A stretch of 61,872 bases of DNA from Tissierellales bacterium (GTDB lineage: Bacteria > Bacillota > Clostridia > Tissierellales > JAOAQY01). A model generated the notes under the pieces. The model was given only the letters and a program-made list of their open reading frames with translations. It was not told the DNA's origin and made no database searches. The position numbers and the translations under genes are program-made. Below, one piece after another: positions 52,967 through 54,036 of this stretch (positions within the stretch are counted from its first letter, which is position 1; each line of letters opens with the position of its first letter). The DNA lies in assembly GCA_025210965.1 (NCBI GenBank), contig JAOAQY010000213.1, positions 1 through 61,872 on the forward strand. Direction: 5' to 3'.

Positions 52967-52995
52967 AAAAAAGCCCTTTTAAGATAAGGGCTTTT
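52967..52995 (-). terminator. Terminator overlapping the end of the iron-sulfur gene
   Basis: AAAGCCCTT and AAGGGCTTT enclose a short loop, followed on the minus strand by TTTTTTT. The stop codon of the gene ending at 52979 is inside the stem. Confidence 0.85.
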
Positions 52996-53833
52996 TCAAT
53001 TTCTTTAAATTAGTAGTTATAGCTTTGGTAGGACATGCGCTAATACATTCTCCGCATCTAATACATTCACTATGATTAGGGGTTTTGCTTGGATCTACAT
53101 CCATTTTACAAGTTCTAGAACATTTTCCGCAATTTATACACAGTTCATCATTTACTTCTAATTTGTAGAAGCTAATTTTGTTAAACAGTGCATAAAATGC
53201 TCCTAGCGGACAAATCACTTTACAAAATGGTCTGTAGAAAAATATAGATGAAAGTATGAATGCTCCCACTAAAAACAATTTCCAATTAAACAGCCATCCC
53301 ACAGATTGCTGTAACCCTGGATTTGATGAGACTAATACAATACCGCCTTCAAGAGTTCCAGCTGGGCACAAGTACTTACAAAAATAAGGATCACCCATAC
53401 CCAAATCATTTGTAAGAAGTATAGGAAATAATATTACAAAAAATATCAATATCAAATACTTTGTAAACTTCAGTATTTTGGGTACCTTAAACTTTGGAGT
53501 AGGTATTTTATAAAGCATATCTTGAATAAATCCAAATGGACATAAAATGCCACAAATCAGCCTCCCCAAAAGAATACCCATCAGCATCATAAAACCAATC
53601 ACGTAAAATGAAAATTTATATCTCATATTTCCCATGACCGCTTGAAGTGAACCTATAGGACACCCTAGTCTTGCACCAGGGCAAGAATAGCAATTCAAAA
53701 AAGGAGCGCATACCGCTTTTGATTTTCCTTTGTAAATTGTTGCATTTACAAATCCTTCGAAATATGAATTACTTCCTATAGCCGTTAATATTTGGATGAT
53801 TCGGCGTCTCACGCCTCTACTTAAATTAACCAA
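52979..53833 (-). CDS. NapH/NosR-type membrane iron-sulfur protein
   Basis: The 284-residue protein has about four to five membrane segments and many cysteine motifs: CAPFLNCYSCPGARLGCPIGS, CGILCPFGF, CKYLCPAG and CKVICPLGAFY, then two 4Fe-4S ferredoxin motifs CINCGKCSRTCKM and CIRCGECISACP. It should pass electrons across or at the membrane. The start is a TTG at 53833 that overlaps the end of the small CXXC gene upstream; no ATG exists before residue 68. It is translationally coupled to that gene. The redox partner is unknown. Confidence 0.88.
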   Translation of the reverse strand: MVNLSRGVRRRIIQILTAIGSNSYFEGFVNATIYKGKSKAVCAPFLNCYSCPGARLGCPIGSLQAVMGNMRYKFSFYVIGFMMLMGILLGRLICGILCPFGFIQDMLYKIPTPKFKVPKILKFTKYLILIFFVILFPILLTNDLGMGDPYFCKYLCPAGTLEGGIVLVSSNPGLQQSVGWLFNWKLFLVGAFILSSIFFYRPFCKVICPLGAFYALFNKISFYKLEVNDELCINCGKCSRTCKMDVDPSKTPNHSECIRCGECISACPTKAITTNLKKLKKPLS

Positions 53834-53957
53834 TTCCTATACACTCCAAACATATATTTATTGCTTTATTGAGTACTACGGCTCCTTCGCCTCTACTAAT
53901 TCCATAAAAAATCATTCCGCAACTAGTTGCTAAAACCAACCACTTCAATTTATTCAT
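53826..53957 (-). CDS. Small CXXC membrane protein (CD1871A-like)
   Basis: This 43-residue gene is too short for usual gene finders but well supported: AAAGGAGTG precedes its ATG, and its end overlaps the start of the iron-sulfur gene by eight bases. Residues 1-20 are hydrophobic (WLVLATSCGMIFYGISRG), then KAINICLECIGIG at the end carries the CLEC (CXXC) motif. I recall a clostridial CXXC family (CD1871A) of this size and ending, found beside 4Fe-4S membrane proteins. A redox-active thiol or metal role is likely, but not proven. Confidence 0.82.
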   Translation of the reverse strand: MNKLKWLVLATSCGMIFYGISRGEGAVVLNKAINICLECIGIG

Positions 53958-54036
53958 AAAATTCACTCCTTTAAACTATATTCTACGCTATTATGGTAAA
54001 ATATAGCTTAAATAAAAGTAACAATCTAATTACAAT

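What the first reader, a model, noticed from the sequence alone, without database searches (positions are those of the whole stretch)
52979..53957. A 43-residue CXXC membrane peptide coupled to a NapH-like iron-sulfur protein
The tiny gene overlaps the start of the iron-sulfur gene, and its CLEC motif lies in a C-terminal end that would sit at the membrane surface. Such a pair could be a minimal transmembrane thiol or quinone redox unit. The iron-sulfur gene begins with TTG and depends on the upstream overlap, which ties their stoichiometry. The start of the iron-sulfur protein has no ATG alternative before residue 68.
Basis: partly seen in the sequence, partly recalled or inferred. Interest (0 to 1): 0.52.

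Follow-up and report, generated by a model that had tools for sequence, protein, structure and literature searches.

The report
Iron-sulfur membrane thiol-reducing pair
A tiny membrane peptide with two cysteines and its iron-sulfur partner protein look like an electron relay that many oxygen-avoiding bacteria use, in place of the standard CcdA/DsbD protein, to keep proteins outside the cell membrane chemically reduced.

Summary
The two genes are real. The 43-aa peptide belongs to a named but functionless family (NCBIfam NF040920, CD1871A_fam, 68.9 bits against a cut-off of 32). Its C-terminal CxxC is invariant in 61 of 61 loci. The NapH-like protein lies downstream of the peptide in 61 of 61 loci found with the peptide. 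In a search driven by the NapH-like protein alone, 65 of 68 genes have the peptide beside them. It is absent beside the window copy but present beside the genome's second copy. In 19 of the 48 the first active-site Cys codon is an in-frame TGA, so the protein is probably a selenoprotein. CcdA/DsbD is in 16 of 60 genomes with the module but 254 of 338 without, and was not found in the window genome. The NapH-like protein keeps all 12 NapH cysteines and adds six, all in loops predicted to face outside. Best reading: an Fe-S conduit plus dithiol peptide that reduces extracytoplasmic thioredoxins, working like CcdA without homology. No biochemistry exists.

The parts
53826..53957 (-). 43-aa CxxC membrane peptide (CD1871A family, NF040920): short N-terminus, one predicted transmembrane helix, C-terminal amphipathic stretch ending in C36-L-E-C39-I-G-I-G
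   Evidence: NF040920 68.9 bits vs cut-off 32; CxxC 61 of 61
53966..53972 (-). ribosome-binding site AAAGGAG of the peptide gene, 8 nt before its ATG
   Evidence: read directly; consensus match, not tested
52979..53833 (-). NapH-like membrane Fe-S protein, 284 aa from TTG (or 277 aa from GTG at 53812): four predicted TM helices, Fer4_5 and two C-terminal [4Fe-4S] ferredoxin motifs, plus six extra cysteines in the two loops predicted to face outside
   Evidence: AF2 model pLDDT 92.1
53826..53833 (-). 8-nt overlap of peptide stop and TTG start of the NapH-like gene
   Evidence: the same -8 TTG available in 18 of 61 loci
52968..52996 (.). palindrome with T-runs on both sides, terminator-like, overlapping the 3' end of the NapH-like gene; suggests a two-gene transcript
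   Evidence: 2 found in the region, 0.5 expected in shuffles; called on the + strand, symmetric for the - strand by eye

Best explanation
The pair is a transmembrane electron conduit that delivers low-potential electrons from the cytoplasm to extracytoplasmic thiol-disulfide proteins; it does the job of CcdA/DsbD with different parts. Proposed path (inferred): reduced ferredoxin or a similar cytosolic donor -> the two C-terminal [4Fe-4S] clusters of the NapH-like protein -> the inner cysteine group C94/C98/C204/C208 -> an outer cysteine group (C42/43, C48, C51, C58, C152, C156; cluster or dithiol) -> the CxxC tail of the peptide -> the CxxC or UxxC of a TlpA/ResA-type thioredoxin, usually a lipoprotein -> substrates. 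Shown here: the parts, their conservation, their linkage, the thioredoxin partner, avoidance of CcdA, lack of quinone synthesis genes in most carriers. Inferred: topology, cluster content, electron order and direction. The window copy has no thioredoxin within 7 kb and would serve one encoded elsewhere, e.g. the 381-aa TlpA-domain protein beside the second peptide/NapH-like pair on contig C41.
For: Pairing: NapH-like gene downstream of the peptide in 61 of 61 loci found by peptide, all but L063 within about 0.8 kb. Found by NapH-like profile (E<=1e-45) in 398 genomes: peptide adjacent in 65 of 68 genes (combined with 19). Found by NapH-like alignment in named genomes: peptide within 0.4 kb upstream in 76 of the 80 best loci kept, elsewhere in the locus in 3, absent in 1. 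Thioredoxin: TlpA/ResA-like gene on the same strand in 48 of 61 (33 upstream, 15 downstream) and 73 of 80 (69 adjacent); representatives are PF00578 over cut-off. Redox activity: 19 of 48 carry one in-frame TGA exactly at the first active-site Cys (UxxC); SelB over cut-off in 18 of these 19 genomes vs 13 of 29 Cys-type genomes. CcdA replacement: PF02683 in 16 of 60 module genomes vs 254 of 338 others, Fisher p about 1e-12, or 19 of 63 vs 251 of 335 after adding three genomes whose peptide was found later; not found in the window genome. Around 20 chosen CcdA genes from related families a thioredoxin-like gene is adjacent in 18 and the peptide or NapH-like gene in 0. NapH comparison: all 12 NapH Fe-S cysteines kept and six added, all in loops A and C, which have low K+R density (0.71 and 0.55 per 10 residues vs 2.85 and 2.32 for the N-terminus and loop B). 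Peptide: N side more positive than C side in 44 of 61 loci, the reverse in 5.
Against: No experiment. 13 of 61 loci, the window among them, have no thioredoxin within about 7 kb. 16 of 60 module genomes also have CcdA. The CcdA statistic is not corrected for phylogeny. Three of 68 NapH-like genes and named locus L134 (which keeps an adjacent thioredoxin) have no peptide, so the peptide may not be strictly essential. The SECIS-like fold test was weak: mean z -0.63 for Sec-type vs -0.31 for Cys-type. Direction of electron flow is not shown.
Confidence: 0.6

Rival explanations
1. The pair runs the other way: TlpA-like protein and CxxC peptide take electrons from extracytoplasmic thiols (disulfide formation, DsbB/VKOR-like) and the Fe-S protein passes them to a cytosolic acceptor.
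For: CxxC relays work in both directions in known systems (recalled). Most carriers lack quinone synthesis genes, so a quinone-independent sink for oxidation would be needed.
Against: The thioredoxin partners are TlpA/ResA-like, a reductase type, not DsbA-like. Sec at the attacking position in 19 of 48 fits reduction better (inference). The pair avoids CcdA, a reductant exporter, and CcdA genes sit next to the same kind of thioredoxin.
Confidence: 0.13
2. Quinol-linked NapH-type electron transfer to an extracytoplasmic oxidoreductase, the peptide being a structural subunit and the CxxC a metal or cluster ligand.
For: The Fe-S protein is NapH-like (TIGR02163 65.5 bits). NapH-like proteins are used modularly with respiratory enzymes (PMC8238504, passages).
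Against: MenD over cut-off in 0 of 60 and strong MqnA/D in 13 of 60 module genomes; neither found in the window genome. TIGR02163 cut-off (213) not reached. No recurrent oxidoreductase other than the thioredoxin in the neighbourhoods.
Confidence: 0.12
3. The pair feeds a dedicated enzyme rather than a general thiol pool, with TlpA as an intermediate for one substrate (for example an extracytoplasmic peroxide or methionine-sulfoxide reductase).
For: CcdA is tied to MsrAB in Fusobacterium nucleatum (PMC9239216; only the search listing and start of abstract seen; the operon detail is recalled).
Against: No third conserved neighbour: two-component regulators (22-23 of 141 loci, often on the opposite strand) and an ABC ATPase (8) are the next most common clusters.
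Confidence: 0.1

Closest known systems
CD1871A family CXXC motif-containing protein (NCBIfam NF040920)
   Same: The window peptide is a member by curated score (68.9 vs 32).
   Different: The family has a name but no function in NCBIfam's title; no paper in the held library names CD1871A.
CcdA / DsbD transmembrane domain (PF02683) with TlpA/ResA
   Same: Proposed role, the thioredoxin partner next door, and phyletic avoidance.
   Different: No homology (PF02683 absent from the Pfam hits of the pair). CcdA moves electrons by intramembrane cysteine pairs from cytosolic thioredoxin (recalled); here Fe-S motifs lie on both faces plus a separate dithiol peptide.
NapH (E. coli b2204) and NosR/RdhC membrane modules
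   Same: Four-helix membrane module with CX3CP motifs and two C-terminal [4Fe-4S] motifs; all 12 of these cysteines align.
   Different: Six extra cysteines in the predicted outer loops absent from NapH; partner is a thioredoxin, not NapG/NapA; below the NapH model cut-offs.
NapH-like and DsbD flavinylation systems (PMC8238504, passages read)
   Same: Same theme: membrane Fe-S or DsbD protein hands electrons to an extracytosolic carrier; DUF4266 is likewise a small protein with a C-terminal CXC.
   Different: Those clusters were defined by ApbE/FMN-binding partners; no FMN-binding cluster stood out near these loci (judged by eye from representative sequences).
Sec-containing TlpA/ResA-like proteins
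   Same: The review's table lists a 'thiol-disulfide isomerase-like protein, cd02966, UxxC' and other Sec thioredoxin-fold families (PMC13188914, table passages).
   Different: None of the families hit reached its cut-off for the four Sec-type proteins scanned; no link to a NapH-like/CxxC pair appears in the passages read.

Membership tests
CD1871A family (NF040920) | Profile score over curated cut-off 32 bits | tested here: met
   68.9 bits, residues 6-43, full profile
CD1871A family (NF040920) | C-terminal CxxC | tested here: met
   C36/C39; invariant in 61 of 61
NapH/MauN (TIGR02163) and NapH equivalog (NF007013) | Score over curated cut-off (213.05; 234) | tested here: not met
   65.5 and 53.8 bits; related, not a member
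NapH | 12 Fe-S cysteines (two CX3CP, two CX2CX2CX3C) | tested here: met
   All 12 align to E. coli NapH
NapH | Gene partner NapG/NapA or quinol pool | tested here: not met
   No such gene among recurrent neighbours; no quinone synthesis genes found in the window genome
CcdA/DsbD (PF02683) | Homology of the membrane domain | tested here: not met
   No PF02683 hit for either protein nor anywhere in the draft genome
CcdA/DsbD as a function | Transfers electrons across the membrane to an extracytoplasmic thioredoxin | not testable with these tools
   Supported only indirectly
Selenoprotein (TlpA partners in 19 loci) | In-frame TGA at a catalytic Cys and SelB in the genome | tested here: met
   19 of 48 with TGA at that codon; SelB over cut-off in 18 of 19
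Selenoprotein (TlpA partners in 19 loci) | SECIS hairpin after the TGA | tested here: inconclusive
   Recurrent GCUGC-AGUU-GCAGC hairpin by eye, mean z only -0.63

The most novel reading that the evidence does not exclude
A second, Fe-S-wired class of transmembrane thiol reductant exporter, unrelated to CcdA/DsbD, in which a 43-residue dithiol peptide is the outer electron relay. It has replaced CcdA in many anaerobic bacterial lineages, and in some it drives a selenocysteine thioredoxin outside the cell. The six extra outer cysteines would hold an additional, outward-facing cluster that reduces a disulfide directly, as in ferredoxin:thioredoxin reductase.
Probability: 0.42. Interest if true: 0.8.

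Novelty: new variant of a known kind. Interest (0 to 1): 0.62.

Why it matters
How anaerobes without CcdA/DsbD move reducing power across the membrane to extracytoplasmic thioredoxins is open as far as my searches show. This gives a concrete, testable candidate present in about 15% of 398 sampled genomes of the phylum (60; 63 after closer inspection) and also in records labelled Treponema/Spirochaetia, Coriobacteriia, Collinsella and Synergistaceae. If right, it assigns a function to a nameless peptide family and to a generic '4Fe-4S binding protein', and explains why their TlpA neighbours are so often selenoproteins.

Tried and rejected
Quinone-linked function: looked for MenD and MqnA/D, mostly absent. 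Peptide-NapH fusions: none seen; in all 61 loci the peptide frame stops 3-5 residues after the CxxC. A solved structure of the membrane part: none, only ferredoxin-domain matches, and no Foldseek match at E<=0.001. SECIS by folding energy: inconclusive. A conserved substrate gene: none emerged from clustering all neighbours. Promoter calls near the genes: 5 found vs 5.8 expected, uninformative. A selenoprotein paper in J Bacteriol (recalled as the likely origin of neighbouring NCBIfam numbers) is not held. The neighbour survey under-counted the NapH-like gene (50 of 61) because its ORF picker preferred long opposite-strand frames, with a profile, gave 61 of 61.

Full report
WHAT IS THERE. On the minus strand of the window, 53957-53826 encodes a 43-residue peptide, MNKLKW...ICLECIGIG, with an AAAGGAG ribosome-binding site 8 nt before its ATG (read). 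Its stop overlaps by 8 nt a frame of 284 residues that begins with TTG at 53833 and ends at 52979. The peptide is a full-length member of NCBIfam NF040920, 'CD1871A family CXXC motif-containing protein' (68.9 bits, cut-off 32), and has no Pfam match. The large protein carries Fer4_5 and Fer4 domains and is NapH-like, but stays far below the NapH model cut-offs (65.5 of 213). The first ATG is residue 67, not 68, and a GTG at residue 8 (53812) is a rival start. The TTG at -8 recurs in 18 of 61 loci and is the only start found upstream in 8; it arises almost automatically from the conserved Ile-Gly-stop ending (ATTGGNTAA), so it is evidence for coupling but not proof.

THE PAIR IS A UNIT. Search by peptide family: 60 of 398 genomes of the phylum match (45 over the curated cut-off), and the window's own genome has two copies, on C213 (window) and C41. 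I took 61 loci (all 60 genomes, two from G000). A NapH-like profile built from them finds the partner downstream on the same strand in 61 of 61; all but L063 (about 2.3 kb) lie within about 0.8 kb, the next widest being L086 and L076. Because those loci were found through the peptide, I reversed the test. The NapH-like alignment A1 over the same 398 genomes at E<=1e-45 gave 68 genes in 64 genomes. The 61 loci plus four further genes (G036, G078, G114, a second one in G297) have the peptide next door, and three (a second gene in G015 and in G134, and the weaker G380) do not: 65 of 68. In 80 named loci (the best 80 kept of 561) fetched with the same alignment the peptide lies within 0.4 kb upstream in 76, elsewhere in the locus in 3 and is absent in 1, L134. 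These include Clostridium tetanomorphum, Peptoniphilus, Lachnospiraceae, Collinsella, Treponema, Spirochaetia and Synergistaceae.

THE THIRD PARTNER. A TlpA/ResA-type thioredoxin (PF00578 over cut-off in the representatives scanned) lies on the same strand in 48 of 61 loci, 33 upstream and 15 downstream, and in 73 of the 80 named loci, 69 of them adjacent. Many have a lipobox by eye. Clustering all neighbours of the 61 peptide-driven and the 80 named loci together shows no other widely conserved gene. The window copy is one of the 13 loci without it. The C41 copy has a 381-aa protein with a C-terminal TlpA domain ending directly before the peptide. In 19 of the 48 thioredoxins the reading frame holds a single TGA exactly at the first active-site cysteine (UPSC, URPC, USFC, UGYC and so on). 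SelB is over its cut-off in 18 of these 19 genomes, the miss being G168, against 13 of 29 with Cys-type (Fisher p 5e-4). A folding test for a SECIS was inconclusive. I take these as selenoproteins; Sec at the attacking position is a sign that the partner is a working reductase (inference).

CcdA AVOIDANCE. In the same 398 genomes DsbD_TM/CcdA (PF02683) is in 16 of 60 with the module and 254 of 338 without (Fisher p about 1e-12). With the three genomes added later it is 19 of 63 vs 251 of 335. The tally was made by hand from the two listings and counts one marginal hit (G061, E 9e-4) as present. It is not corrected for phylogeny. The own genome (95.8% complete) has no PF02683 hit. I then fetched the surroundings of 20 CcdA genes, chosen by me from families that also contain module carriers (17 from genomes without and 3 with the module: G088, G230, G078). 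A thioredoxin-like gene is adjacent on the same strand in 18 of 20, several of them weak profile matches, and the peptide and NapH-like gene are in none. So the pair stands where CcdA stands elsewhere.

ANATOMY OF THE FE-S PROTEIN. In 37 aligned sequences (37 of the 61) C48, C51, C58, C94, C98, C156, C204, C208 and eight ferredoxin cysteines are invariant; C152 is in 34 of 37; a further Cys within residues 40-45 (42 or 43) is present in all. Against E. coli NapH, all 12 of C94, C98, C204, C208 and the ferredoxin cysteines are shared, and C42, C48, C51, C58, C152 and C156 are absent from NapH. With four helices and the N-terminus inside, as the charge distribution suggests (K+R per 10 residues: N-terminus 2.85, loop A 0.71, loop B 2.32, loop C 0.55, after TM4 1.19), exactly those six lie in the two outside loops. 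No fold or sequence match covers the membrane part in the PDB. The peptide has one helix-length hydrophobic stretch, a Gly invariant in 61 of 61, Glu or Asp in 60 of 61, and ends 3-5 residues after the CxxC in all 61. The N side is more positive than the C side in 44 of 61, less in 5, which favours an outside tail but is not decisive.

DONOR. MenD is over its cut-off in 0 of 60 module genomes. MqnA/D has matches over cut-off in 17 genomes, 13 of them strong (over 150 bits) and 4 weak; the window genome has neither. So most carriers, as far as these two routes show, make no menaquinone, and a quinol donor is unlikely there; ferredoxin is the natural candidate (inference).

MECHANISM. I conclude that the pair works like CcdA/DsbD: it takes cytosolic low-potential electrons and passes them outward to thioredoxin-fold proteins, with the peptide's CxxC as last relay. 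Shown: parts, linkage, partner, avoidance, cysteine pattern. Not shown: topology, clusters, direction, contact. In the window the pair stands alone with a terminator-like palindrome at its end (52968-52996) and would act on a thioredoxin encoded elsewhere.

KNOWN OR NEW. The peptide family is named; no paper in the held library contains 'CD1871A'; none holds TlpA+NapH+CcdA or CcdA+4Fe-4S+TlpA+anaerob; other searches gave selenoproteome reviews, flavinylation and CcdA-Msr work. From passages: NapH-like proteins are used modularly with extracytosolic carriers, and a small CXC protein (DUF4266) accompanies DsbD and thioredoxin-like proteins (PMC8238504); the role of the CX3CP motifs is unsettled (PMC5928378, passages); Sec TlpA-like families are catalogued (PMC13188914, passages). 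Subscription papers are not held, so a description there cannot be excluded. I rate it a new variant of a known kind (transmembrane reductant export), not a categorically new thing.

Noticed in passing
L036, L044, L045, L047-L050, L053-L056, L058-L061, L063, L064, L066, L068 (19 loci); also L099, L130, L131: TlpA/ResA-like proteins with an in-frame TGA at the first active-site Cys (UxxC), which my standard ORF calling split into two short ORFs; none of four scanned reached a curated NCBIfam cut-off.
   Followed up: partly
L032 (G000:C41:1-6649): The same genome carries a second, diverged peptide/NapH-like pair (NapH-like proteins 54% identical) with a 381-aa protein whose C-terminal part is TlpA-like and whose N-terminal about 200 aa match nothing in Pfam.
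   Followed up: partly
L206 (G015), L207 (G134), L205 (G380): NapH-like relatives of about 220-320 bits with no CxxC peptide or thioredoxin nearby; possible peptide-independent branch.
   Followed up: no
L134: NapH-like gene with an adjacent thioredoxin-domain protein but no recognisable peptide: a natural test of whether the peptide can be dispensed with.
   Followed up: no
L063 (G015) between peptide and NapH-like gene: About 2.3 kb, including a 443-aa frame, separates peptide and NapH-like gene, whereas the same-genus genome G134 (L064) has 275 nt there.
   Followed up: no
L070, L072, L073, L075, L076, L081, L083, L086: A CLSCIGIQ subgroup of the peptide whose pairs have no thioredoxin within 7 kb and whose NapH-like proteins have Ser in place of C152 (three of them aligned, the rest by eye).
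   Followed up: no
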